Below are positions 6,708 to 27,160 of a stretch of DNA of 64,000 nt, in pieces. Positions within the stretch are counted from its first letter, which is position 1. Each line of letters opens with the position of its first letter. A program made the translations under genes and the position numbers. This DNA comes from Salinisphaera sp. LB1 (GTDB taxonomy: Bacteria > Pseudomonadota > Gammaproteobacteria > Nevskiales > Salinisphaeraceae), in assembly GCF_003177035.1 (NCBI RefSeq), contig NZ_CP029488.1, positions 1,054,001 to 1,118,000 of the forward strand, read 5' to 3'. The notes below the pieces were generated by a model that saw only the letters and a program-made list of their open reading frames with translations, was not told where the DNA came from and made no database searches.

Positions 6708-8081
6708 CTACAGGCCCTGCGCCGCCGCGACGAACTGGCCGACCAGCGCACGCCATTGGGGACGATTGCGGCCGTTGATCCGCATCCGGCCGTCGCCCAG
6801 CACGAGCCGCATGCGGTAACGTTGCCCGTCGTCGGAGGGCGCAATCAGATTGCGCGCCACCAGTGCCTGCACGCGGGCATCGATGGCGGCCTCGGGCGGC
6901 GCGCCGGCCGTGGCCCCCAGCGTACGCCCCAGCAACCGGCGCAGAATGGGCCGTGGCAACGAAAGTCGCAGCCGTGCCTGCAGCTGAGACAACGCCGCCG
7001 CCGCATCGCGGGAAGGCTTGAAGTCTGGTGGCACCTGGATATGCGCGCCAGCCCGGATTGCGCCGTCGCGCGTGGCGAGTTCGAACCGGCCGACCTGCAC
7101 TTGCGAGCCCGGCGGCAACAACCCGGGCAGGATGTCGTGATACAGCTCGGGGGCGTCGAGCGCCCCGCCCGACCAGCCGCCGAGCCGGCGCCAGCGGTCG
7201 GGCAGTGCGGCCCAGGCCAGCGGATGCAGGCCGTGCTGGCGCGCATGGAGAATGACCGCGCCCTGGGTGCTGTCGGGCAACACGAGTTTCCCGATATGGA
7301 GCGAGACCGCGGTGGTGCCCGGTGCGGGGCAGCGAGTGGTCAATTTTAAATGGCTCAGCCGAGTCGCGTGTCCGTGACCGTTGTCCAACGTGATCGAATC
7401 GGCGGTAAGTCGACTGTTGGCGAGTTCTCCGCCGGGTGCCGCGCGCGCCTGGAAATGCAGATGGCGCCAGGCGATATGGCCCGCCGACTGGCGCACCAAC
7501 GAAAACGAGGGCCAGTCCAGGCTCAGGCCATGGATCCGGCGGGCGAGCCAGCCGAACCGCAGCGCCCCGGATACGGTCGCGGTCTCCACCTGTGCCACCG
7601 GCTTTCGACGGGCGACACTGAAGGTCATCCCTGTGAATGACAGATGCGCCCGCCCACGGCCATCCAGCCGGATATGCGAGGTGACGGTCAGCGGGCCGGG
7701 CGCCGGCGAGAAGGCATAATGCGGCCAGAGCGACGTCAGATCGGCGCGTGTCTCGACCACTGCCAGCACCGGACTCAGCGACACCGGCGTCGCGCCCCAG
7801 GCCAGCGGACCATGATCGATACGGCTGGCGAGCGCGAGCGCCGGGCAGGGTTGGGCGTGACAAAGAGGACCGATCGGGCGCAATACGACCGTCGCATGCG
7901 AGACGAACCAGCCGCGATCGAAAGTCCGGCGCACCACTTGCAGATAGCCCGGCACCGCGAGATGCGCCACCACGGCATCGAAACGCGCAGCCAGCACCCA
8001 GCCAACGCCATACGGCGCCGCCACGCCCAACAGCGCGAGCGCCGCCAGGCCCCAGAGCAGCGTCTTGATCAGCCGCCGCAA
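6708..8081 (-). CDS. YdgA-like DUF945 family protein
   Basis: Protein of 457 residues with an N-terminal membrane anchor (LIKTLLWGLAALALLGVAAPYGVGWVLA, residues about 4-31) followed by a large, probably periplasmic, beta-rich domain. The early sequence, with FDRGWFVSHATVVLRP near 57-72, resembles the DUF945/YdgA family, whose members are envelope proteins of unclear function. The gene starts with a TTG at 8081 with only a weak ribosome binding site, so the exact start is uncertain. The C-terminus contains the RIGNVDGQRYRM-like pattern (SDDGQRYRMRLVLGDGRMRINGR). The 267 bases between it and mnmG hold no gene that I can support. Confidence 0.72.
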   Translation of the reverse strand: MRRLIKTLLWGLAALALLGVAAPYGVGWVLAARFDAVVAHLAVPGYLQVVRRTFDRGWFVSHATVVLRPIGPLCHAQPCPALALASRIDHGPLAWGATPVSLSPVLAVVETRADLTSLWPHYAFSPAPGPLTVTSHIRLDGRGRAHLSFTGMTFSVARRKPVAQVETATVSGALRFGWLARRIHGLSLDWPSFSLVRQSAGHIAWRHLHFQARAAPGGELANSRLTADSITLDNGHGHATRLSHLKLTTRCPAPGTTAVSLHIGKLVLPDSTQGAVILHARQHGLHPLAWAALPDRWRRLGGWSGGALDAPELYHDILPGLLPPGSQVQVGRFELATRDGAIRAGAHIQVPPDFKPSRDAAAALSQLQARLRLSLPRPILRRLLGRTLGATAGAPPEAAIDARVQALVARNLIAPSDDGQRYRMRLVLGDGRMRINGRNRPQWRALVGQFVAAAQGL

Positions 8082-8358
8082 GACAACGCCCGGCCGTCGG
8101 TCGCGCCTGCACGCGCGACGCGCTGAATTCGAACCCGGAATCGCCGACCGTTCATGAGTCGCATATTAGGCGCAGTCGGCGGCAACCGCGAAGTCGGCCC
8201 CGGCGCGCCGATGCATTCGGGTGGGGACCGCGCCGGTCTGGTATGTATCTTGATAAGACTGTCCCGGAACCGGCGCGTTTGCGCCGTTGCACTTTTATAG
8301 CGCACCGGCGCGTGCATACGCACCATCACGGCGCTCGACATCAGAACAGGCTGACTCC

Positions 8359-10083
8359 ATGACCGATGCTGCCCGAGGCGCCACGCCCGACGAGGCGACC
8401 CAGGAAACCTTCATCGAGTGGCTCGCGCCGCTCTACGGCGACGGCGCCGCCCGCGACTGCATCGACGCGATGGCCGAGTCGGCACGGCACCACAATCTGC
8501 CCCGCAGCACCGACATGGCGGTCGATCAGTCGCTCAACCTGATGATCACCTACCCCGATATCATCCAGCACCCGGGTCAAGCGCCGCTGGCCACCCTGCG
8601 TGATTTCATCGCCCAGAACATCGGCGATGCCATTACCGCCGTGCATCTCCTGCCATTCTTTCCGCACAGCTCGGACGAAGGGTTTTCGGTGATGAACTAT
8701 CGCGAGGTCAACCCGGATTTCGGCGCCTGGGAAGACATCCACGCGCTGGCCGACGACAAGCCGCTGATGTTCGATCTCGTGCTCAACCATGCCTCGCGCA
8801 AGGGCGTGTGGTTCGCGCATTATCTGGCCGATGCCGATCCCGGGCGTGACTATTTCATCGAGGTCGACCCGGCCGCGGACCTGCGCTCGGTGGTCCGCCC
8901 GCGCGCCACACCGCTACTGGCCGAAGTGGTCACGGCCCGCGGCACGAAACATCTCTGGGCCACCTTCTCGGACGACCAGATCGACCTGAACTTCGCCAAC
9001 CCGCGAGTGATGAACGAATTCATCGACATCATCTTCGGGTACGTCGCCCACGGCGCGCGGCTTTTACGCCTGGATGCGGTGGCCTTTCTCTGGAAGGAGA
9101 TCGGCACGCCCTGCATCCACCTGTGGCAGACCCACCGCGTGATCAAGTTCCTGCGGGCGGTGCTCGAATACTATGCCCCGGGCCTGCAGTTGATCACCGA
9201 AACCAACGTGCCGCACGCCGAAAACATCTCGTACCTCACCGATGGCGACGAGGCCCACGTCGCCTACCAATTCGTACTTCCGCCGCTGGCCGCCCATACC
9301 CTGCTCACCGGCGACGCCACGCGGCTGACCGAATGGGCCTCCAGCCTGCCGCCGCTGCCCGCGGGCTGTCATTTTCTGAATTTCACCGCCAGCCACGACG
9401 GCATAGGCCTGCGCTCGGTCGAATCGATTCTTTCCGACGACCAGCGCGACGCACTGGTCGCGACCACCCGCGAGCGTGGCGGCTTCGTGTCGACCCGGGC
9501 CATGCCCGACGGCAGCACGCGTCCCTACGAACTCAACATCACCTATTACGACCTGCTGGGCGCGCCCGGGGAACGCGACAGCCAGAACCATATCGACCGG
9601 TTCGTCGTCAGCCAGGCGATCGCGATGGCGCTGGCCGGCATTCCGGCGCTGTATTTCCACAGTCTGGTCGGCACCCACAACGACCTGGAAGGGGTCGAAG
9701 CCTCCGGCCACAGTCGTTCGATCAACCGGCGGCGCTACGATCTCGGCGAGCTCAACTACCAACTCGGCATCGATTCGCACCACGCCCGCGTGCTGGCCCG
9801 GCTCAAGCGCCTGCTGGTGGTACGCGCCCGCCAGCCGGCCTTTCACCCCGACGCGGCCCAGTCCATCGTCGACCTCGGCCCCTCGCTGTTCGCCGTGCAG
9901 CGCAGCACAAGCGACCAGACCCTGCTCGCCCTGCACAACGTCACCGACAAGCCAGTCAAGGTGCCGGGGCACATACTGCCCGAGGCGCGCGTGCGCCGGA
10001 ACGTCACGGCGTCCACCCAGATCAGCGGCGCCCAGCGCACGATATCGCTGGCGCCCTACGAAATCGCCTGGATCAGCGATTAG
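8359..10083 (+). CDS. Glucosylglycerate phosphorylase / sucrose-phosphorylase family (GH13_18)
   Basis: Predicted to phosphorolyse 2-O-alpha-glucosylglycerate to glucose 1-phosphate and D-glycerate in the cytoplasm. It is 574 residues from the ATG at 8359; the frame is open upstream but MTDAARG is the natural start. GH13 features are VHLLPFFPHSSDEGFSV near 95, DLVLNHAS near 138, the nucleophile region LRLDAVAFLW near 236, the acid/base region ITETNVPH near 280 and ASHDGIG near 346. Sucrose phosphorylases are shorter (about 490-500 residues). The length, plus gpgP and gpgS 2 kb away, favours the glucosylglycerate enzyme (E. coli YcjM and Meiothermus type) over sucrose phosphorylase. Specificity is inferred from context, not from a verified specificity loop. 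Confidence 0.85.
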   Translation: MTDAARGATPDEATQETFIEWLAPLYGDGAARDCIDAMAESARHHNLPRSTDMAVDQSLNLMITYPDIIQHPGQAPLATLRDFIAQNIGDAITAVHLLPFFPHSSDEGFSVMNYREVNPDFGAWEDIHALADDKPLMFDLVLNHASRKGVWFAHYLADADPGRDYFIEVDPAADLRSVVRPRATPLLAEVVTARGTKHLWATFSDDQIDLNFANPRVMNEFIDIIFGYVAHGARLLRLDAVAFLWKEIGTPCIHLWQTHRVIKFLRAVLEYYAPGLQLITETNVPHAENISYLTDGDEAHVAYQFVLPPLAAHTLLTGDATRLTEWASSLPPLPAGCHFLNFTASHDGIGLRSVESILSDDQRDALVATTRERGGFVSTRAMPDGSTRPYELNITYYDLLGAPGERDSQNHIDRFVVSQAIAMALAGIPALYFHSLVGTHNDLEGVEASGHSRSINRRRYDLGELNYQLGIDSHHARVLARLKRLLVVRARQPAFHPDAAQSIVDLGPSLFAVQRSTSDQTLLALHNVTDKPVKVPGHILPEARVRRNVTASTQISGAQRTISLAPYEIAWISD

Positions 10084-16997: not shown

Positions 16998-17095
16998 AGG
17001 AATCGAGATGGAACCGGCCAATCGGCCGATATCGTACTATGGCAGACCCGACACCCAACCGGCCGGCGGCCCACGGCCGGCAAAAGAGACGAGGT

Positions 17096-18226
17096 ATGGC
17101 CGACAAAACCGTCGTGATCGCTCCGGACAGTTTCAAGGGCAGCCTCGCGGCGATCGACGTCGCCCGGGCGATTGCCGAGGGCCTGACCGCCCACGACAAT
17201 CCACCGCGCACGCTGATTGCGCCCATGGCCGACGGCGGCGAAGGCCTGCTCGATGCCGTGGCCGCGACCTGCGACGGTCATTGGCAGACGACAACGCTGG
17301 TCGGCATTCATGGCCGGTCGCTGGATGCGCCGTGGTACGCCATGACCGACGGCCCGGTGGTGCTGGAATCGGCCACCGTGCTGGGCCTGCCGTTGATCGA
17401 GGCCATGGACGATGCCCCGCCACTGGCCGAGCGCAGCAGTTACGCGCTCGGCATGCTGATCGCGGATGCGCTGGATTCCGGCGCCACGGATCTCGCCATC
17501 GGGCTGGGCGGCAGTGCCTGCAACGACGCCGGGCTCGGCATGCTGGCCGCGCTCGGGGCCACCCCTTACAACGCCGCGGGCGAGGTCATTGCGCCGAGCA
17601 TGCACGGCCTGCTGGCGCTCGCGCGGCTGGATCTGTCCGGGCTGGACGCTCGCCTGGCCGATGTCCGTATCCGCGTGCTCTGCGATGTCGACAACCCGCT
17701 GCTGGGCGAAAACGGCGCCAGCCGCGTCTACGGCCCGCAAAAAGGATTAACCGACGACGACATCGTCGAGGTCGAGGCCGCCTTCGAACACCTGGCCGAG
17801 ACCACCGGCGCACGCGACCGGACGACATGGCCCGGCAGCGGCGCCGCCGGCGGCCTCGGCTTCGCGCTCGCAAGGATCGGCGGCCGACTCGAATCCGGCG
17901 CCGAAGCCGTGCTGAAGATGACCGGGCTGGCCGGCCACATGCGCCAGGCCCGCTGCGTGATCACCGGCGAGGGCCGTTCCGACCGCCAGACCCTGTCCGG
18001 CAAATTGCCGCTGGCCGTGGCCCGCGCCGCCCGGCCCACGCCGACGCTATTGGTCTGCGGCGACATCGCCGACGATGCACGCCGCGAACTGGAAACCCAT
18101 TTTACCGGCACCTACACACTGGTCGAACGCGCCGGCAGCATAGAGGCCGCCATGGCCACACCCGCGCGCTGGCTGTTCGAGATCGGCGCGGACCTGGCCG
18201 ACGTGATCGCCGAACTCCCGGCATGA
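17096..18226 (+). CDS. Glycerate kinase (GlxK/GarK family)
   Basis: Phosphorylates D-glycerate with ATP; members of this family usually give 2-phosphoglycerate. It is 376 residues from the ATG at 17096, preceded by AGACGAGG. Hallmarks are VIAPDSFKGSLAAIDVARAIAEG near 6, PMADGGEGLLDAV near 41, GLGGSACNDAGLGMLAALG near 138-156, NPLLGENGASRVYGPQKG near 200 and the C-terminal TGEGRSDRQTLSGKLPLAVA near 285. It may recover the glycerate released by the glucosylglycerate phosphorylase 7 kb upstream, returning it to glycolysis. That link is inference, because the two genes are not in one operon. Confidence 0.92.
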   Translation: MADKTVVIAPDSFKGSLAAIDVARAIAEGLTAHDNPPRTLIAPMADGGEGLLDAVAATCDGHWQTTTLVGIHGRSLDAPWYAMTDGPVVLESATVLGLPLIEAMDDAPPLAERSSYALGMLIADALDSGATDLAIGLGGSACNDAGLGMLAALGATPYNAAGEVIAPSMHGLLALARLDLSGLDARLADVRIRVLCDVDNPLLGENGASRVYGPQKGLTDDDIVEVEAAFEHLAETTGARDRTTWPGSGAAGGLGFALARIGGRLESGAEAVLKMTGLAGHMRQARCVITGEGRSDRQTLSGKLPLAVARAARPTPTLLVCGDIADDARRELETHFTGTYTLVERAGSIEAAMATPARWLFEIGADLADVIAELPA

Positions 18227-18318
18227 TCCCTCGATAGTGCGTGGGGCCGGGGCGACATCCGCCGGATGCTGCCCTATCATTGGCCGCGCTCGCTCGCCCC
18301 ACAGACCGGAGACTGGCC

Positions 18319-19272
18319 ATGCTGCGCAGCTTTGCCATCGACCACGGCCGTATCGTCGAGGACCGTTCGCAGGACACCCCGGTCGCCGAACGGCTCGCCC
18401 ATGCCCACTGGATTGATGCGCTGGAGGCCGACGAGGCCGAACGCGCCGAACTGACTCGATTTCTCACCGATGAGTTGCCCGAGGACGAGGACGTCGAGGA
18501 AATCGAGGCCTCGGCACGTTACTTCGTCGACCCCGACGGCATCCACGTACATTCGCTGTTTCTCGCGCAGAGCGAGGGCCGGCACGACACCGAAACCGTG
18601 GCGTTCATTCTGCAGCCCGAGCGCCTGATCACCCTGCGTGATGACGACCTGGCCGATTTTCGGCTACTGCGCCTGCGCGCCCGCGCCGGCCAGCTCGAGG
18701 TCGATTCGCCCGAATCACTGCTGGTCACCATCTTCGATCAAAAGGTGGAGAACCTCGCCGACACCGTCGAGGACATCCACCTCGATCTGGAAAAAGTCAG
18801 CCATACCGTGCTCGAGGACGAAGACGCCGACTACGAGGCCGCCATCGATGCCCTGGCCAAGCTGGAGGACTCGTCCGGCAAGATCCGGCTGTGTCTGATG
18901 GACACCCAGCGCTCCATCTCGTTCATACTTCGCCATCTGCCGGCCCGTGCGCCCGAACGCGAAATCGCGCGGGAAATCCTGTCGGACGTGGACACACTGA
19001 TGAGCCACATCGCGTTCCTGTTCGACAAGATCAACTTCCTGATGGACTCCACCGTGAGCTTCATCAACATCGAGCAGAACCAGATCATCAAGATCTTTTC
19101 GATCGCCGCGGTGGTGTTCCTGCCGCCCACGCTGGTAGCCAGCATCTACGGCATGAACTTCCAGCACATGCCCGAGCTGTCCTGGCATTACGGCTATCCG
19201 ATGGCGCTCGGGCTCATGGTCGCCGCCGGCATCGCGCCGTATCTGTACTTCAAGCACAAGAACTGGCTCTGA
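18319..19272 (+). CDS. corA: CorA-family magnesium/divalent cation channel
   Basis: Homopentameric inner-membrane Mg2+ channel of 317 residues. A long acidic and helical cytoplasmic domain (about 1-250) is followed by two C-terminal membrane helices, about 255-277 and 290-310, separated by the selectivity motif YGMNFQHMPE. The protein ends in the basic YFKHKNWL typical of CorA. GGAGA lies just upstream of the ATG at 18319. The frame is open upstream, but MLRSFAIDHGRI is the natural start. It is the last conserved housekeeping gene before the lower-GC island that follows. Confidence 0.94.
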   Translation: MLRSFAIDHGRIVEDRSQDTPVAERLAHAHWIDALEADEAERAELTRFLTDELPEDEDVEEIEASARYFVDPDGIHVHSLFLAQSEGRHDTETVAFILQPERLITLRDDDLADFRLLRLRARAGQLEVDSPESLLVTIFDQKVENLADTVEDIHLDLEKVSHTVLEDEDADYEAAIDALAKLEDSSGKIRLCLMDTQRSISFILRHLPARAPEREIAREILSDVDTLMSHIAFLFDKINFLMDSTVSFINIEQNQIIKIFSIAAVVFLPPTLVASIYGMNFQHMPELSWHYGYPMALGLMVAAGIAPYLYFKHKNWL

Positions 19273-19450
19273 CGGAACCGAACAGACGGGCGCCGGCGCC
19301 TGCCGGCATGCGGTCGACTTCGAGCGGCCCGTCTGATGGGGAACCTTCACAACGGCTACGGTCTCGACGCTGTTTGCATCGGGCCACGGAAGACAGCGAG
19401 GTTCGGTTTCGCACCGTAGCGCGAGTCGCTTGCGTTGGCTTGTCCGAACG

Positions 19451-19490
19451 AAAGCCGGTGTATGCGGGCCGTCTTCCGCATACAGGCTTT
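19451..19490. repeat. Long imperfect hairpin
   Basis: Arms AAAGCC (19451-19456) plus TGTATGCGG (19459-19467) pair with CCGCATACA (19476-19484) plus GGCTTT (19485-19490). This gives 15 paired bases with a 2-base bulge and an 8-base loop. There is no T-tract after the stem on either strand. It could be a transcription end for corA, a transposon or REP remnant, or a structured RNA element. Confidence 0.45.
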
Positions 19491-19572
19491 AAAACAATGC
19501 CTTGCCGGCAGATCGCATCAGCACGCCGCACCTGATCCGACGTTCAATCCGAAGATGCCGGGGCCCGGCTGT

Positions 19573-19599
19573 CGGATTACGGTGCGAGCACCTAATCCG
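19573..19599. repeat. REP-like palindrome 1
   Basis: Stem CGGATTA (19573-19579) with TAATCCG (19593-19599), and an inner stem GGTGC/GCACC around a 2-base loop. The CGGATTA...TAATCCG theme resembles the dispersed 'TCGGATTAGCG...AATCCGA' REP-type repeats that I recall from many proteobacteria. Other copies in the genome cannot be counted from this window. Confidence 0.55.
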
Positions 19600-19653
19600 G
19601 CCTACGTAGCTTGGATATCTTCCGCCTGATTTGAAATCCCCCAGCCGCGTAGA

Positions 19654-19677
19654 TCGGATTAGCGAAGCGAAATCCGA
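19654..19677. repeat. REP-like palindrome 2
   Basis: Stem TCGGATT (19654-19660) with AATCCGA (19671-19677) around AGCGAAGCGA. The first half, TCGGATTAGCG, recurs downstream of the SIR2 gene at 23789. Such palindromes are often mobilised by RAYT-type transposases, none of which is present here. Confidence 0.6.
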
Positions 19678-19845
19678 CGGGCCGAACTCCACACGGGCCG
19701 GCGCGCTTGGCCGTGTCGGTTTACGGCCAAAACCTGCCGTCCGCTCCAAGCAACGACGCCACCCAGAAACCCGTAGAAGCGCACATTGGATTACACCCAC
19801 AAGTTCTAAAGTAGAATCCACGAGCATCCCCGAGAGGTTCGGACT

Positions 19846-22800
19846 ATGAGGTTTTACGCCGATGGCCCTTCCATCCCAGATGTCCTCCTCGCCCGCTGCG
19901 ATGCTGGGCGAGTTGTATTCCTGTGTGGCGCAGGTGTTTCCCAACCATCGGGAATGCCGAGCTTTGTAGGACTCACTCAGCACGTCATCGAGTTTTTCGA
20001 CCCCCCGGAGGATTCACGGATCATGACGGCCTTCCAGCCTTGGCTGGACGACCCTTCCGGACCAAACGTCCCGCTCGATCAAATCTTTAACCTGCTGCAC
20101 CAAGAGTACGGTAGAGACGAGGTTAATGCGCTGGTCACCGAAAGACTGCGTGTCCCGCCATCGGGGGGAGAGGTTGGGCGTGAACACGCTCTGATCAAAC
20201 GGATTTCGACAAATCCAAGCGGCGTTCCACAGATCGTGACCACGAACTTCGACCTGATGTTCGAGACCGGAGCGGTTGGCGACAAGCTAGCAAGGCATGT
20301 GCCTCCAGTCTTCCCCGATCTGGCGATCGGAGCGACGATCGAGGGAATCACCTATCTTCATGGACGCTTGGCCGACCCTGGCTCGGATCATCATCGCTAC
20401 GTGCTGAGTAGCGCAGACTTCGGGCGCGCCTATCTGTCGGAAGGATGGGCGACAAACTTCATCCGAAGCCTATTGGGCCGATACACGGTGGTGCTCGTCG
20501 GCTACCAAGCCGAAGACCCTCCGATCAAATACCTCCTCCAGGGCCTGAACCATGATGGCCAGTTTGATCGATCTCGGCTCTATGCGTTCGACCGGGGCCT
20601 GCCGGAAGAGATTGAAGCCAAATGGAGTGATCGAGGCGTGACTGCTATAGCCTACGCCGACCACGCTGATCTGTGGAAGACAATGGAGGCCTGGGCGGAT
20701 CGCGCCGACGATCCTCGGCAATGGCGGTCTTCGGTGATTACGCGCAGCCGAGCGGACCCCAAAGTAATGTCGGCCCATGAGCGTGGGCAAGTCGCCCACG
20801 TTCTCCGGACCGTGCAAGGTGCCAAGTTGTTTTCTTTGGCCCATCCGACGCCCGATCCAGAATGGGTGTGTGTGATCGATGACAATGTGCGATCAGCCAA
20901 ACCGAGCAAGGACTACGGTCAAGAAGCCGAAACATTTGATCCAAGGGCAGCCTACGGGCTCGACGACGATCTCGAACACATCTCGGAAGATGAGCAGCGG
21001 CAGGGTGTCAGCAACGACAATCTTCTCGTCTGGCGAGACGGGGACGACAACCCGCATGACGGTCATCGCCTCGCTGGGCGGCAAGCCGAAGGGTATGAAG
21101 CAACTCCAATTCGGCTTGGGCACCTCATCACGTGGATTAGCAAGGCGATCGATAGCCCCGTTCTGGCCTGGTGGGCAATTCGGCAAAGCGGCCTGCACCC
21201 TCGCCTGCTGGAACAGATCCAATGGCAGATGAAGCACTGGGAAGGCCTTCACGAGCGGGCGCGCCACATTTGGAACATGGTCCTTGAGCACCACCGGGAC
21301 CCCCGGGGCCGCCAATGGGACGGCAGTTGGTTTCACCTGAAGAATAGGGTAGCCAAAGAAGGATGGACGGCCAGCGTTCTTCGCGACTTCCGACGGGTGG
21401 CAACTCCGAGGGTTGATATCCGACCACTCGTCGGCTTGGGGCAGTCGAAGCCGCCGTCCGTGTCGTGGGATGACATTCGCCTCCGCGATCTTGGTCAGTT
21501 CGAGGTCAAATTCCTTGAACGACACAACGACGATCTTGCAGTACCCGACGAGGTCTTGCCGCAGGTATTCGCGATTCTGGAAGCGCAGCTAACCAACGCG
21601 TCGGGTCTGCTGGCAGACATCGGGACAGTCTACTTCAAGCCCCCGACATACTATCCGGATCGCGTAGTCGATGGCCGACAGCATGTCACTAAAGCCGCCA
21701 AGATCATGAAATGGTTCGTCGAGCTCCTCGATCGCCTGTCTCAAACACGGCCCGACCTGGTACGAGCCCATGCCACGATCTGGCCGGAGTCGGATCAGTT
21801 CTTCTTTCGGAAACTCAAGCTGTATGCCTACAGTAAGAAGAGTGTCTTCGAAGCTGACCAAGTTGCCAAAACCATTCTGTCCTTCGACCAGACGGCTTTC
21901 TGGGATATCAACGTAGCTCGAGAGCTTCTTTTCCTGCTGGTGGACCGCTGGCCGGAGTTTTCACAAGACAGCCAGAACAGGCTGATTGATCGAATACTGG
22001 AAGGGCCGGAACAACTTCCCCATTGGTCAGACGAGAAGTTCCCCGAGCTTCGGGACGAGTTCGCGGCGCGATATGCCCGCCACCTCCAGCTAGAGGGCTG
22101 TGCCCTTGCCGCTGATCGCAACGAGCGCCTCGACGCGATGATCCGGGGCATTCCTCGGTGGAGCGATGGCTGGGCGACTTCAACGGTCACCGAGCGCGGT
22201 TCCCACGTCGGCTTTGTAGGAACTGACGAGAACCCCGAAGCCGTTTGGGACCTTCCTGTGAATGAGATCGTGGCGCAGGCCAAGGATGATCTGAAGCGGG
22301 ACTTCGGCAGCTTCACCGAAAAACGCCCATTCACCGGGCTAGTGAAAGCCAACCCCCGCAAGGCGCTGTCTGCCCTTACCGTTGCAGGCAAGAGCGGTGA
22401 CTACCCGCAGGCCTTCTGGTCATCCATGATCAACGAACTGCCTGAGGACATTTCTCCGCGGCTACGACGAGTCTTCTTGCACAGGCTGACCCGACTTCCG
22501 GGCGCAGTAGTCGCAGAGCTGCGGCACACACTGGGGCGATGGCTCGAAAACAACCTGGTCGCAATCCTAGAGTTCGATGACAAGCTCGGGTGGGCAATCT
22601 TCGATCACGTTGTTGACGGCATCCTGAGCGGCGGTGCGGATGCAGCCGAGAGTGGTCTCGGCGAGATGAGCGTCAGGCGCGAAGTGGTGGAGCGGTCCAG
22701 GAGGACATACGGACATGCGATCAATGGTCCGCTCGGCATGTGCGCCGAGGCTCTTTACCGCGCCGTTCCGGGCGAGAAGCAGGAAGCTGGTTCGCTTGTC

Positions 22801-23655
22801 CCGGAACATATCAAGGGCCGGGTGGAACGCCTCTTCGCTGCACCGGGGGAAGGTTCGGATCACGCTGTTTCGGTCACGATGAGCAAGCTCAACTGGCTCA
22901 TGTTCGTCGATCCTGAATGGACTGGGCATCGCCTTGTTCCGATGCTTGCGTTCGATCATCCAGCCTCGGAACCAGCATGGAATGGCTTCCTGCATAGTGG
23001 CCAAATTCCGCGGCCACCGCTGGTCGAAGTCATAAAGCCGCTCCTGCTTGAACTGTTCCCGTGGGTTGAGGGCTTTTCTTGGGATCGCGAACTTTCGGAG
23101 ATCGCCGCCCAATGGCTAGGCTTCATGCGGGTGTTCCACCCTGGCGAGCCCGCTGGCCTATCAAAAAAGGAAATGCGTTCGGCCCTTCGGGCGATGTCTG
23201 ACGAGACGCGGAACCAGTTCGTCTTCTGGTTGGGCATGGTGGGTCAGGAGAACGAGGGTGGCTGGGCCAAACTCGTCATCCCGTTCATTAACGAGGTCTG
23301 GCCCAGGGAACGCAAGTATCGAACATCGGCTTCGGTACGGGCATGGGTCGGCCTCCTAGACGATACCGGCGACAGCTTTCCGGCGGTCTACGAAGCCGTG
23401 AAGAAGTTTCTGGTTCCAGTCGAGACGAACGACCATCCCTTCTACAGGTTCACCCGAGAGATCAATGACGAAGAACCCATTACGGTGCGCTACCCTGAAG
23501 CTACATTGGATTTAATGAACAGGGTCACACCACAGGCTCTAGCTCGGCCACCGTATGAGTTACCGAAAGTTCTGGCCTTGATCGCCGAAACTGAACCCAA
23601 GCTGACATCAGATGGTCGGTATTTGCGCCTGATTGATCTGGTTGAGCGAAGCTAA
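19846..23655 (+). CDS. SIR2-domain anti-phage defence protein, Dsr1-like
   Basis: Large single-gene candidate defence system, 1269 residues. The N-terminal SIR2 NADase domain (about 15-290) shows GAGVSQPSGMPSF at 28-40, the TTNFD motif at 132-136, a YLHG catalytic-His motif at 170-173 and GYQAEDP at 219-225. The roughly 950-residue remainder is helix-rich with no other enzyme motif that I recognise. In known defence-associated sirtuins (Dsr1/Dsr2) this part senses a phage protein and unleashes NAD+ depletion, causing abortive infection. Length and layout fit Dsr1, whose C-terminus I recall carrying DUF4020; this needs a profile search. The start has GAGAGG 8 bases upstream. Base composition and codon use are visibly less GC-biased than corA and mlaA around it, and REP-like repeats flank it, all pointing to horizontal acquisition. 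Confidence 0.8.
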   Translation: MRFYADGPSIPDVLLARCDAGRVVFLCGAGVSQPSGMPSFVGLTQHVIEFFDPPEDSRIMTAFQPWLDDPSGPNVPLDQIFNLLHQEYGRDEVNALVTERLRVPPSGGEVGREHALIKRISTNPSGVPQIVTTNFDLMFETGAVGDKLARHVPPVFPDLAIGATIEGITYLHGRLADPGSDHHRYVLSSADFGRAYLSEGWATNFIRSLLGRYTVVLVGYQAEDPPIKYLLQGLNHDGQFDRSRLYAFDRGLPEEIEAKWSDRGVTAIAYADHADLWKTMEAWADRADDPRQWRSSVITRSRADPKVMSAHERGQVAHVLRTVQGAKLFSLAHPTPDPEWVCVIDDNVRSAKPSKDYGQEAETFDPRAAYGLDDDLEHISEDEQRQGVSNDNLLVWRDGDDNPHDGHRLAGRQAEGYEATPIRLGHLITWISKAIDSPVLAWWAIRQSGLHPRLLEQIQWQMKHWEGLHERARHIWNMVLEHHRDPRGRQWDGSWFHLKNRVAKEGWTASVLRDFRRVATPRVDIRPLVGLGQSKPPSVSWDDIRLRDLGQFEVKFLERHNDDLAVPDEVLPQVFAILEAQLTNASGLLADIGTVYFKPPTYYPDRVVDGRQHVTKAAKIMKWFVELLDRLSQTRPDLVRAHATIWPESDQFFFRKLKLYAYSKKSVFEADQVAKTILSFDQTAFWDINVARELLFLLVDRWPEFSQDSQNRLIDRILEGPEQLPHWSDEKFPELRDEFAARYARHLQLEGCALAADRNERLDAMIRGIPRWSDGWATSTVTERGSHVGFVGTDENPEAVWDLPVNEIVAQAKDDLKRDFGSFTEKRPFTGLVKANPRKALSALTVAGKSGDYPQAFWSSMINELPEDISPRLRRVFLHRLTRLPGAVVAELRHTLGRWLENNLVAILEFDDKLGWAIFDHVVDGILSGGADAAESGLGEMSVRREVVERSRRTYGHAINGPLGMCAEALYRAVPGEKQEAGSLVPEHIKGRVERLFAAPGEGSDHAVSVTMSKLNWLMFVDPEWTGHRLVPMLAFDHPASEPAWNGFLHSGQIPRPPLVEVIKPLLLELFPWVEGFSWDRELSEIAAQWLGFMRVFHPGEPAGLSKKEMRSALRAMSDETRNQFVFWLGMVGQENEGGWAKLVIPFINEVWPRERKYRTSASVRAWVGLLDDTGDSFPAVYEAVKKFLVPVETNDHPFYRFTREINDEEPITVRYPEATLDLMNRVTPQALARPPYELPKVLALIAETEPKLTSDGRYLRLIDLVERS

Positions 23656-23889
23656 TTCCCAGGCAAGTTGAACGGCAGGCCTCTGTTTCTAGCCAGACAT
23701 TGCACCGTTGCTGCAAAGAAAGCTTTGAAATGTTGAGACTGAAAGTTCTTCTTGCGTCCGCATCGACGGCTGGTTCCCGCCCTTCATGTCGGATTAGCGC
23801 ATCATGCTGCACTTGGCACGAAGGACCGCTTCGGGTCGTAGTCGGCCCAAAGCCAACTGTTCCCATTCCGGTGACCACTTCCCACGGAT
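23656..23889. other. Intergenic region downstream of the SIR2 gene with half a REP-like repeat
   Basis: No gene supported. TCGGATTAGCGC at 23789-23800 repeats the first arm and loop start of the upstream palindrome at 19654, but without its matching second arm. This may mark the right boundary of the inserted segment. The conserved mlaA stop follows at 23890. Confidence 0.5.
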
Positions 23890-24654
23890 CTAGTGCGCGA
23901 CCTGCAACGCCCGATAGTTCATGTAAACCAGCCGCACCAGCGTGTACTCGAACGGCGAGCCGGTCTGGTAATAGCGGAAGTTGGTCTGGTCACGCTTGTT
24001 GATCACGTACATCAGGTTGTAGGCCACACTGGCCGGCACGTTGCCATTGGTCTGCGTCGGATCGAGCACGTACAACAAGCCCTGATCGGCCGCCAGCCCG
24101 GTTGCGTCGCGCACATCGGAGGGGCCGAAGAACGGCAGCACGAGATAGGGCCCGGTACCCACGCCGTAATGGCCGAGCGTCTGGCCGAAATCCTCGTCGC
24201 GCTGTTTCAGCCCGATATGCGTGGCCGGATCGAACAGCCCGCCGATACCGACCGTGGAATTGATCACGAAACGCGATGCGGTCACCGCCGAACTCTTCGG
24301 CTTGAGCTGCAGCACGCTGTTGGTGAGGGTCGTGATCTCGCCGATATTGGAAAAGAAATTGGCCACGCCGGTGCGCATGAAGCCGGGGGTGTAGCGATCA
24401 TAGACGTGCACCACCGGCAGAAGCACGTACTCGTCGGTCAGCGCGTTGAAGCGGTAGACACGACGATTGAATCCTTCCGCCGGGTCCGAGATCGCCAGCG
24501 GGTTGGCCGTGGTCTGGCTCACCGGCGTGCTGGCGGGCGTCGAGTTGTCGATGGTTTTGGGCGGCGGTGTCGAGGCACAGGCCCCCAGAAACAGGCACAG
24601 GGCCATTACCAGGGGCAACGGCCGGCGGGATCGAGCGTGTTGCAAGGCATTCAT
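23890..24654 (-). CDS. mlaA: Outer-membrane lipid asymmetry lipoprotein MlaA (VacJ)
   Basis: Lipoprotein that extracts mislocalised phospholipid from the outer leaflet of the outer membrane and passes it to the Mla pathway. It is 254 residues. The signal peptide ends in a lipobox LGAC with Cys26. The MlaA domain begins DPAEGFNRRVYRFN near 57, with VANFFSNIGEITTLTNSVLQLK near 97, FVINSTVGIGGLFDPA near 129, DEDFGQTLGHYGVGTGPYLVLPFFGPS near 152 and the RD motif after it. It starts 4 bases inside the 3' end of the upstream lipoprotein gene (ATGA overlap), so the two are co-translated. The MlaFEDCB transporter is not in the window. Confidence 0.95.
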   Translation of the reverse strand: MNALQHARSRRPLPLVMALCLFLGACASTPPPKTIDNSTPASTPVSQTTANPLAISDPAEGFNRRVYRFNALTDEYVLLPVVHVYDRYTPGFMRTGVANFFSNIGEITTLTNSVLQLKPKSSAVTASRFVINSTVGIGGLFDPATHIGLKQRDEDFGQTLGHYGVGTGPYLVLPFFGPSDVRDATGLAADQGLLYVLDPTQTNGNVPASVAYNLMYVINKRDQTNFRYYQTGSPFEYTLVRLVYMNYRALQVAH

Positions 24655-26009
24655 TGGGTAAAGTAATCCTGCAGCGCGTGAATCGTTTTCTTGTAACTCA
24701 GGTTACCGAGGTGGCCGCCATGTGGCCGGATCCGCGCGCGGCCCTTGAAGGTATGGCGCAGGAACTGGACCTCGTCGGCATTCAGGATCGGATCGTCCGC
24801 GTTCGTGAACACTGCGATGTGGTCATCGCTGGCCAGAAACGGCGCGATGCGGTGCATATCGCCCTCGGATATCAACTGCGCCTTGCTCACATGCCGGCCG
24901 TCGCGATTCCAGTACGGCACCAACAGCTGGTTGATGTAATTGGAAAACGACATCCGGAAGGAACGACGGAAATAGACCCCGAGCGAAGCATAGGGCCCGA
25001 GGTTGACGTTCTTCGGCACGATCACGTCGGAATGCGTCAGCACATCGGCGGCGAATGCCATGTTGGCCAGCGACAGCCGGAACGCCAGGCCCACGATGGC
25101 GCCGATATCCTTCTTGTCGAAGGCGCCTTTCTCGTAGGCCTGATACAGCGCATCTTCATTGAAGCGCAAGGGCTTACCATGGCCTTCACTCTGCTGGATG
25201 TTGCCCAGGACCTGCGCCAGGAACCGGGGCAGCGCAGCGAAGCCGCCGGGCAGATTCCGTTGCAACAGGTTGTCCATCCGACCGACCGAGGCCCATAGGC
25301 TGACCGCGGGGTTGAGCAGTAATACGTGCTGGAAGTGAAACACCTGGCGCTTCTGATCCAGATGGGCGACGAACGCTGCTTCGGTCGCACCCAGACTCCA
25401 GCCTGTCAACGAATAGCCGGTAATATCGATATCCCCGGACACATCGTCGCGCACGGCCTGCATCATCCGATACAGATCGGCCACGTCGGTCTTCATGCGC
25501 CCCGGCACGGGGTGTCTGGCGGCGCCCAGCATGAATGTCACACTGGTGGGCGACGGCAGGCAGGCCACGCTGTAACCCACCTGATAGAGCGCACGCGAGA
25601 GCAGCAGACATTTGCTCGACAGTGCCGAGTCGCCGGTTCCGGCAATCACGAACGCCAGCGGCGCCGGATGATTCTGGGCGGCCAGCATATACTTTAGAGG
25701 GCGGGCATAGCGCAGCGTGGGCGGCGTTTTACGATCGACCAGCGGCTTGAGCGTCCGAATCGAGAGATTCGCTTTCTTCGGCAGCTCGGCTTTCATCCGG
25801 TCCGGCGTACCGAGCACCGTGGCCGTCAGTGGGTTCTTGAACGGATAGGGTTTGACATGGGAACCCTGGGCGGCGGCATGATGCGTGGTCGATGATGTCC
25901 CTGCTTTAGTCGCCGTCGCGGGCGGCGGGCCGCCCTGTGTGGCGCACCCGGCCAGGGCGGACAAAAGCAGTAGACCGGCCATGAATCGCCGGCATGAGAC
26001 TGAAAACAC
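24651..26009 (-). CDS. Alpha/beta-hydrolase lipoprotein co-transcribed with mlaA
   Basis: Protein of 452 residues. The lipobox LAGC has Cys22, so it is probably anchored in the envelope. A Thr/Ala/His-rich linker (about 25-55) precedes a hydrolase domain: AFVIAGTGDSA near 119-129, a nucleophile elbow GWSLG with Ser205, an acid candidate in FTNADDPIL near 415 and a His candidate in PHGGHLG near 434. The triad order matches serine hydrolases of the S33/lipase type. Overlap with mlaA by ATGA suggests a role in envelope lipid turnover, for example cleaving lipids handled by MlaA. That is inference: I recognise no named family member. Confidence 0.75.
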   Translation of the reverse strand: MFSVSCRRFMAGLLLLSALAGCATQGGPPPATATKAGTSSTTHHAAAQGSHVKPYPFKNPLTATVLGTPDRMKAELPKKANLSIRTLKPLVDRKTPPTLRYARPLKYMLAAQNHPAPLAFVIAGTGDSALSSKCLLLSRALYQVGYSVACLPSPTSVTFMLGAARHPVPGRMKTDVADLYRMMQAVRDDVSGDIDITGYSLTGWSLGATEAAFVAHLDQKRQVFHFQHVLLLNPAVSLWASVGRMDNLLQRNLPGGFAALPRFLAQVLGNIQQSEGHGKPLRFNEDALYQAYEKGAFDKKDIGAIVGLAFRLSLANMAFAADVLTHSDVIVPKNVNLGPYASLGVYFRRSFRMSFSNYINQLLVPYWNRDGRHVSKAQLISEGDMHRIAPFLASDDHIAVFTNADDPILNADEVQFLRHTFKGRARIRPHGGHLGNLSYKKTIHALQDYFTQ

Positions 26010-26092
26010 GGGCCTACCTGAACGACCTCAAAATTTGCTTCATCATACCGACAACCGGTTCGCCGGGGGGATGTTATTTCCGAGTATTGCCC

Positions 26093-27160
26093 ATGACCCA
26101 GATTCTGATCGTTGGCGCCGGCGTAGCCGGCATGGCCGCCGCCGAGCACCTGACCGCTGCCGGCTATGCGCCGAAGCTGGTCGACAAGGCGGCACGGCCG
26201 GGCGGCCGCTGCGCCACACGGCGGATTGCCGCGGAGCTGGACGCCGACTGGTTCGACTACGGCGCGCAGTATTTCACCGTTCGCGATGAGGGATTTCGCG
26301 CGCTGGTCGATGCCGACCTCCAGGCCGGGCGTCTCGCGCACTGGTCGCCGGCCATCGCCAGCGCCGAACGGGTGGCCGGCACCTGGCTGCTGACGCCCTC
26401 GCCCGATGATCGCGAACGCCTGATCGGACCACGCGGACTCAATGCCTGGGTTCGCCAGCGACTGCAGGCCGCCCGCCTCGAGGTCGCAACCGAGCGCCAG
26501 GTTCAGCGAATTGTCGCCGAGGGCGGGCGCTGGCGCATCGACTACGCCGACGGCAGCGCCGAGTGGGCCGACGTCGTCGTCTGTACCCCGCCGGCGGTAC
26601 AAACCGCGGCGCTGCTCGGGCCGCGCGCCGTGGGTATCGACGCGCTGGCGCACCCGGAGGCCGCCCTCGCGGCCTGTCATTCAGTGGTGGTTCGTGGGCC
26701 CGCCCTGCCCGAACGCCAGGCGATCTTCTTCAAATCGGGGCGGCTGTCCTGGGTGGCCGACAATACGCACAAGGCCGGGCGCAGCGGCGACCGCCATCTC
26801 TGGACACTGCACGCGGATGCACAATTCAGCGAATCCCACATCGAAACACCCACTGCCGAACTGGCAGACGCGCTGATCTCGGAATTCGCGACCGCGACCG
26901 CGCAGCGCGCCAGCGACATGGAAATCGTGCGCACCCATCGCTGGCGTTACGCCCGGCCGGGCCCGGGCGCCCCGGATGCCGACGAGCTGTGCTGGGCCGA
27001 TACCGATTCCGGGCTGGCGATCGCCGGCGACTGGCTTGCCGGCGGCCGCATCGAAGGTGCCTGGCTGTCGGGCCGCGAAGCCGCCCGGCGCTTGATCGCA
27101 GCCTACGCACTCGGTCACTCGCCGGGCCGCGATAAGCCGGGCTCAAGTCGGCCCGGATAA
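26093..27160 (+). CDS. Renalase-like FAD-dependent oxidoreductase
   Basis: Flavoprotein of 355 residues. The N-terminal Rossmann motif is ILIVGAGVAGMAAAEHL near 4-20, followed by KLVDKAARPGGRCATRR near 28, typical of the renalase / amine-oxidase-like family. WFDYGAQYFTVRD near 55 and the C-terminal GLAIAGDWLAGGRIEGAWLSGREAARRL near 305-332 are family hallmarks. Bacterial renalases oxidise off-isomer dihydro-NAD(P); the substrate here is unproven. The ATG at 26093 is preferred over an upstream one at 25994, because the dinucleotide motif should start within a few residues. It is divergent from the lipoprotein gene and convergent with ndh (17-base gap). Confidence 0.85.
   Translation: MTQILIVGAGVAGMAAAEHLTAAGYAPKLVDKAARPGGRCATRRIAAELDADWFDYGAQYFTVRDEGFRALVDADLQAGRLAHWSPAIASAERVAGTWLLTPSPDDRERLIGPRGLNAWVRQRLQAARLEVATERQVQRIVAEGGRWRIDYADGSAEWADVVVCTPPAVQTAALLGPRAVGIDALAHPEAALAACHSVVVRGPALPERQAIFFKSGRLSWVADNTHKAGRSGDRHLWTLHADAQFSESHIETPTAELADALISEFATATAQRASDMEIVRTHRWRYARPGPGAPDADELCWADTDSGLAIAGDWLAGGRIEGAWLSGREAARRLIAAYALGHSPGRDKPGSSRPG

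What the first reader, a model, noticed from the sequence alone, without database searches (positions are those of the whole stretch)
19846..23655. Solitary Dsr1-like sirtuin defence gene in a lower-GC island
A 1269-residue protein has all four SIR2 active-site motifs (GAGVS at 28-32, TTNFD at 132-136, LHG at 171-173, GYQAEDP at 219-225) and a giant C-terminal region without other enzyme motifs. It is inserted between housekeeping corA and mlaA. This is the architecture of defence-associated sirtuins, which deplete NAD+ on sensing a phage protein. The sensing region may be new for this lineage.
Basis: partly seen in the sequence, partly recalled or inferred. Interest (0 to 1): 0.78.

Follow-up and report, generated by a model that had tools for sequence, protein, structure and literature searches.

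The report
Lone Dsr1-like antiphage NADase gene
A bacterium has picked up a single large gene that very probably works as an alarm against viruses, destroying the cell's NAD+ when a virus is sensed; it belongs to a little-studied sister branch of a known defence protein called Dsr1.

Summary
The ORF at 19846-23655 (+) encodes 1269 residues with every stated motif at its stated position. Its first 290 residues fold like the NADase sirtuins ThsA and DSR2 (Z 19.3 and 18.5). Residues from about 420 on form an alpha-solenoid. It is colinear with Dsr1: PADLOC Dsr1 E 1.7e-84; the C-terminal parts alone align at E 7e-57. It is not a Dsr1 equivalog by NCBI's rule (374.6 bits, cut-off 1400). In both trees it lies in a sister group, split off with full support, that holds none of nine Dsr1 references. 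It was not found in 13 of 13 congeners; the corA-mlaA junction lacks it in 8 of 12 fetched, and the other 4 show no corA there. It is AT-richer than its neighbours. Relatives occur on plasmids, in contigs with phage genes and beside known defence genes. Best reading: a horizontally acquired single-gene sensor-NADase defence. The trigger is unknown and no activity is shown here. New member of a known kind.

The parts
19846..23655 (+). Dsr1-like SIR2-solenoid gene, 1269 aa, stop included
19846..20715 (+). SIR2 (SIR2_2-type) NADase domain, residues 1-290
   Evidence: Pfam PF13289 at 129-268; fold match to ThsA/DSR2 over about residues 1-290
19927..19941 (+). GAGVS, NAD-binding motif, residues 28-32
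   Evidence: G28 A29 G30 S32 invariant in the 69 rows
20239..20253 (+). TTNFD, residues 132-136, with predicted catalytic N134 (DSR2 N133)
   Evidence: invariant in the 69 rows; DSR2 N133 from PMC11087589 passages
20356..20364 (+). LHG, residues 171-173, with predicted catalytic H172 (DSR2 H171)
   Evidence: H172 G173 invariant in the 69 rows
20500..20520 (+). GYQAEDP, residues 219-225
   Evidence: G219 Y220 D224 invariant in the 69 rows
21103..23652 (+). alpha-helical solenoid, about residues 420-1269, proposed sensor
   Evidence: models (residues 550-1269; residues 1-1200); fold search; more variable than the SIR2 part
19832..19837 (+). possible ribosome-binding site GAGAGG, 8 bases before the ATG
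   Evidence: read from the sequence; not tested
19790..19817 (+). promoter-like site; the only one found in 19200-24000, where 1.5 are expected by chance
   Evidence: weak

Best explanation
This is a horizontally acquired, single-gene antiphage system of the Dsr1 type. The C-terminal alpha-solenoid recognises a phage-made protein during infection. Binding releases or opens the N-terminal SIR2 domain, probably within an oligomer, which then hydrolyses NAD+ and so stops phage multiplication. Shown here by computation: the SIR2_2 NADase-type domain with intact catalytic Asn and His, no cysteine between residues 28 and 341 and so no zinc module of the deacetylase kind, colinear homology to Dsr1, a solenoid in the sensor's place, absence from congeners with odd composition, and defence or phage genes near some relatives. 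Inferred from DSR2 and Dsr1: NADase activity, oligomer, phage-protein trigger and antiphage effect.
For: Dsr1 homology: PADLOC Dsr1 E 1.7e-84, NCBIfam Dsr1 E 1.1e-111, C-terminal parts (residues 301 on) alone probability 100%, E 7e-57 over 890 columns. SIR2 domain: BcThsA Z 19.3 (249 residues, 3.6 A) and DSR2 Z 18.5 (253 residues, 4.0 A); the first 43 Foldseek rows are DSR2 chains. Catalytic motifs invariant in the 69 rows. Cysteines only at 18, 27, 342, 752 and 966; PMC12700824 (passages) puts DSR1 in the SIR2_2 subfamily and says that SIR2_2 proteins lack the zinc module needed for deacetylation. C-terminal model helical, pLDDT 89.8. Horizontal gain. Relatives on plasmids (60 records with a match, 27 over 80% of the length; some of the 60 are annotated Dsr1); three close relatives in contigs with phage tail, baseplate, integrase, exonuclease or endolysin genes; some relatives next to RADAR-like, Olokun-like and type I R-M genes and Shedu. 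Purifying selection: dN/dS 0.033-0.073 against four of six relatives tried, dS saturated; the other two could not be computed.
Against: No tested member of this clade turned up in my searches (held library only, and the founding DSR1 paper is not held). The Dsr1 equivalog cut-off is missed by far. The defence neighbours were not counted against a control set. The solenoid matches no solved sensor specifically. PMC10952713 (passages) reports that DSR1, unlike other such systems, stops phage replication without cell death, so the outcome of NAD+ loss is open.
Confidence: 0.85

Rival explanations
1. A SIR2 protein that modifies proteins (deacylase or ADP-ribosyltransferase) with a housekeeping or regulatory role.
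For: Weak, far-below-cut-off resemblance to NAD-dependent protein deacylase models (11.8 and 10.8 bits).
Against: No cysteines for a zinc module; Pfam SIR2_2 rather than SIR2; the best fold matches are defence NADases, human FAM118B coming lower (Z 14.1); not found in 13 of 13 congeners; relatives scattered over distant groups and on plasmids.
Confidence: 0.05
2. A prophage- or plasmid-carried exclusion or stabilisation gene that acts against other mobile elements (plasmids, satellites) rather than chiefly against lytic phages.
For: Three close relatives lie in contigs with phage genes; many relatives lie on plasmids, some beside toxin-antitoxin genes.
Against: The window copy stands between conserved chromosomal genes, and the six neighbouring ORFs given to Pfam hold no phage or plasmid gene; such carriage is equally expected of a defence gene.
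Confidence: 0.07
3. A silent passenger: gene intact by recent arrival, but not expressed or used.
For: Composition unlike its neighbours; only a chance-level promoter match; decayed copies exist among relatives.
Against: Open over 1269 codons with all catalytic residues, low dN/dS against relatives, a plausible ribosome-binding site.
Confidence: 0.03

Closest known systems
Dsr1 (defense-associated sirtuin 1; NCBIfam NF041818, PADLOC PDLC04167/PDLC02183)
   Same: Single gene, about 1260 residues, N-terminal SIR2_2, colinear C-terminal region.
   Different: 21% identity to an annotated E. coli plasmid Dsr1, 374.6 bits against a 1400 cut-off, separate clade with full support.
DSR2 (defense-associated sirtuin 2, trigger phage tail tube protein)
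   Same: SIR2 domain fold and catalytic Asn/His; helical C-terminal part after the SIR2 domain.
   Different: No detectable sequence homology of the C-terminal parts (E 0.4, against two Dsr2-like sequences only); 1269 residues against 1004-1005 in the PDB entries.
ThsA (Thoeris) and KomC
   Same: SIR2 NADase fold, Z 19.3 and 17.5.
   Different: Those work with a partner protein (Thoeris: PMC10973363 passages; KomC: entry titles); here a long solenoid is fused and no tightly linked partner gene lies beside the window gene.
Avs5 (SIR2-STAND)
   Same: SIR2 effector domain (Z 16.4).
   Different: No STAND NTPase found in the window protein by Pfam.

Membership tests
Dsr1 equivalog (NCBIfam NF041818) | score at or above the curated 1400 bits | tested here: not met
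   374.6 bits; four relatives of its clade 355.5-459.1 bits (L082, L133, L148, L167)
Dsr1-type superfamily (Dsr1 and sister clade) | significant, colinear match to Dsr1 over SIR2 and C-terminal region | tested here: met
Dsr1 clade proper | placement inside the clade of Dsr1 references | tested here: not met
   9 of 9 references lie across a branch with support 100; that side also holds rows below the cut-off (e.g. L186, 338.1 bits)
SIR2_2 NADase sirtuins | SIR2_2 domain, catalytic Asn/His, no zinc module | tested here: met
   criterion from PMC12700824 passages
SIR2_2 NADase sirtuins | NAD+ hydrolysis | not testable with these tools
   bench assay needed
DSR2 | sensor part homologous to DSR2's | tested here: inconclusive
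   E 0.4, but only two Dsr2-like, below-cut-off sequences were used; alignments to DSR2 that run beyond the SIR2 domain have rmsd over 20 A
Single-gene antiphage system | no obligatory conserved partner gene | tested here: met
   776 naive neighbour ORFs of 96 loci: the commonest first upstream family occurs in 7 loci; no co-directional ORF of 100 aa or more within 40 bases of the window gene
Single-gene antiphage system | protects against phage | not testable with these tools
   bench assay needed

The most novel reading that the evidence does not exclude
The window protein represents a distinct third lineage of large defence sirtuins, beside Dsr1 and DSR2, whose solenoid recognises a phage component other than the tail tube and which in some alphaproteobacteria works as a translationally coupled pair with a KAP-type NTPase (PADLOC candidate PDC-S49; the KAP label is my recall).
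Probability: 0.35. Interest if true: 0.55.

Novelty: new member of a known kind. Interest (0 to 1): 0.36.

Why it matters
Dsr1 is known as a defence NADase, but its trigger is not named in the passages of six papers that I saw (the founding paper is not held), and a sequence search found no solved Dsr1. The sister clade is well populated: one genome scan found 433 stretches that encode relatives, and all 58 of the best 80 loci that entered the tree lie on the window's side. Several are 70-75% identical, and six viral-contig rows are on that side. Such natural variants would let trigger recognition be mapped. The gene is otherwise an ordinary case of a mobile defence gene.

Tried and rejected
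DUF4020: not found in the window protein or in six relatives scanned with Pfam. DSR2 membership: C-terminal parts give E 0.4, and the Dsr1-DSR2 comparison is as weak (E 0.14); the test is shallow. DSR2 is not among the 50 rows shown for the C-terminal model alone, and the solenoid's best rows (PP2A scaffold Z 10.8, CAND1, importins) stay under the caution value of 13 for helical repeats, so no specific kinship is claimed. RNA or repeat features: no Rfam match at 17000-27000; only short repeats within 19000-24200, none of them a long flanking pair. Mode of insertion: no recombinase among the six neighbouring ORFs given to Pfam; unknown. Defence elsewhere in the window: of 47 other ORFs scanned, one matches PADLOC mad3 and one mad8 (possibly the same ORF); none of ten of them rescanned singly did, so these were not placed and are not claimed as a system.

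Rows dropped before counts: 10 of 107 relatives had stops or frame breaks in the match and were left out of the trees and models, as were one reference with stops (L043), near-duplicates and fragments; the neighbour clustering kept the broken loci of genome contigs. Neighbour family scans used 140 of 146 listed ORFs, from 39 of 40 chosen loci, as L123 gave none; six were left out to keep the set small, among them the upstream gene of L090 and two pieces at L093. One of the 140 matches Shedu SduA, but the output does not say which. Neighbour ORFs are naive longest-frame calls. No control set was run for the defence neighbourhood. The ten proteins were chosen, not random; three of them matched nothing.

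Full report
The thing itself. The window holds an ORF at 19846-23655 (+), 1269 codons from ATG to stop. No other frame over these bases is open for more than 231 codons. Pfam finds one domain, SIR2_2, at E 9.7e-14. PADLOC's Dsr1 models match at E 1.7e-84 and 3.5e-84, with the best stretch in the C-terminal region. NCBI's Dsr1 model matches at E 1.1e-111 but with 374.6 bits against a curated cut-off of 1400.

Setting. The gene lies between corA and mlaA. A protein search of 99 other genomes found no match in 13 of 13 of the same genus (three of them under 90% complete) and a match in 4 of the 99; two of those four, G021 and G031, match the SIR2 part only. I fetched the junction from 12 of the 13 congeners; in the thirteenth, G010, the corA match runs to a contig end. 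In 8 of 12 glycerate kinase, corA, mlaA and the next gene stand in the same order with roughly 40 to 1,030 bases between corA and mlaA and no sirtuin; in the other 4 no corA was found there and glycerate kinase is next to mlaA. The gene has 58.3% GC and GC3 65.4%; seven neighbouring genes have GC3 76.4-84.9%. So a single gene was probably gained here, by an unknown mode. corA, on the same strand, ends 573 bases upstream; no co-directional ORF of 100 aa or more lies within 40 bases.

Relatives. The 58 of these that I aligned are 27-74% identical to window residues 1-1200. They come from Pseudomonadota mainly, but also from Chloroflexota, Gemmatimonadota, Bacillota and others, many of these as metagenome bins, where a contig may be misplaced. 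Plasmids gave 60 records with a match, the best a Tritonibacter plasmid at 63.8% over the whole length. Named phage records gave none, but 27 viral-contig loci were found, three of them 70-73% identical. Those three contigs carry phage genes close by: a tail protein (L162), an integrase and an exonuclease (L163), a baseplate protein and an endolysin (L164) (ten chosen ORFs, five of them without a match). The identity to an annotated E. coli plasmid Dsr1 is 21%.

Place in the family. A FastTree of 98 rows and an IQ-TREE of 39 rows agree. The nine Dsr1 references (eight over the curated cut-off, one so annotated) fall on one side of a branch with support 100, the window protein on the other: 74 rows with no reference, 19 with none. 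The root is only a midpoint. Four members of the window's side score 355-459 bits with the Dsr1 model; of three viral-contig proteins of the other side, two score 1990 and 2057 bits and one, from an outer branch, 338. The C-terminal parts alone still align with those of Dsr1 over most of their length (probability 100%, E 7e-57, 890 columns). The protein is therefore a Dsr1-type sirtuin of an unnamed sister clade, not a Dsr1 equivalog.

Fold. A model of residues 1-1200 (pLDDT 87.3, pTM 0.56) matches BcThsA (Z 19.3, 249 residues, 3.6 A) and DSR2 (Z 18.5, 253 residues, 4.0 A) over about residues 1-290, and Foldseek's first 43 rows are DSR2 chains. Residues 550-1269 were modelled apart (pLDDT 89.8, pTM 0.67): an alpha-solenoid, with best rows in PP2A scaffold, CAND1 and importins (Z 10.8 and below), so of HEAT/ARM type. 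That is within what unrelated helical repeats can give. By sequence, no solved Dsr1 was found in the PDB.

Mechanism. In DSR2 the residues N133 and H171 are needed for NAD+ cleavage, the SIR2 domains form a tetramer, and tail tube protein binding to the C-terminal part switches the enzyme on (PMC11087589 and PMC10973363, passages). The window protein has N134 and H172 in the same motifs, invariant in the 69 aligned rows. It has no cysteine between residues 28 and 341, so the zinc module that canonical deacetylating sirtuins need is missing, as in other SIR2_2 proteins (PMC12700824, passages). In 29 rows, the window and 28 close relatives, residues 1-300 are the most conserved (median pairwise identity 0.74) and residues 561-700 the least (0.52), as expected if the solenoid adapts to changing triggers; this is suggestive only. 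Purifying selection is strong (dN/dS 0.033-0.073 in four of six comparisons, dS saturated; two could not be computed). I infer that the solenoid binds a phage-made protein and releases the SIR2 NADase. Activity, oligomer and trigger are not shown. A review states that DSR1 stops phage replication without killing the cell (PMC10952713, passages), so the outcome is open.

Surroundings of relatives. Of 140 neighbouring ORFs from 39 loci, some match PADLOC models. Ten chosen ones were scanned singly: RdrA- and RdrB-like genes side by side at L092, OloB at L100, a type I restriction enzyme at L106, a type I methyltransferase at L127, PDC-S49 at L088, a weak phospholipase effector match at L120, and three without a match. 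On plasmid pMOL28 the neighbour is annotated as Shedu. No control was counted, so this is support, not proof. No neighbour family recurs widely: among 776 naive ORFs of 96 loci the commonest first upstream family is in 7 loci. In six of these (L088, L089, L090, L091, L105, L136) the 659-661-residue upstream gene, PDC-S49 at L088, overlaps the sirtuin start by four bases, which suggests a coupled pair in some alphaproteobacteria.

Verdict. Novelty is modest: PADLOC's Dsr1 profiles already reach it. What is unknown is the trigger.

Noticed in passing
L088, L089, L090, L091, L105, L136: about 8019-10004: In six alphaproteobacterial loci a 659-661-residue upstream gene overlaps the sirtuin start by 4 bases; the L088 copy, the only one scanned, is PADLOC candidate PDC-S49 (E 1.2e-133). 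Possible two-gene variant.
   Followed up: partly
window 19474-19611: Dispersed repeat upstream of the gene: 22 further matches to the queried 251 bases in the own genome, 19 of them to this stretch at 75-86% identity.
   Followed up: partly
L073, L116: Broken copies of relatives: an Enterobacter plasmid copy whose match covers only the C-terminal half, among IS3-family transposase genes, and a Yersinia artesiana copy with extra sequence inside the match.
   Followed up: no
L084, L110, L148, L150, L153: One gene family, GMP synthase by Pfam in two of the neighbours scanned, lies close to the sirtuin in five loci; a possible recurrent insertion site.
   Followed up: no
L202 (G015) and L201 (G080): One genome of the same family carries a member of the true Dsr1 clade, and one of the same order another lineage on the Dsr1 side, so at least three lineages of this type occur within one order.
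   Followed up: partly
window 17039-26009 compared with L197-L200: No corA was found at this junction in 4 of 12 congeners, so the site varies beyond the sirtuin.
   Followed up: no
window, one or two of 47 ORFs, not placed: Matches to PADLOC mad3 (E 3.8e-37) and mad8 (E 1.7e-13); none in ten ORFs rescanned singly.
   Followed up: partly
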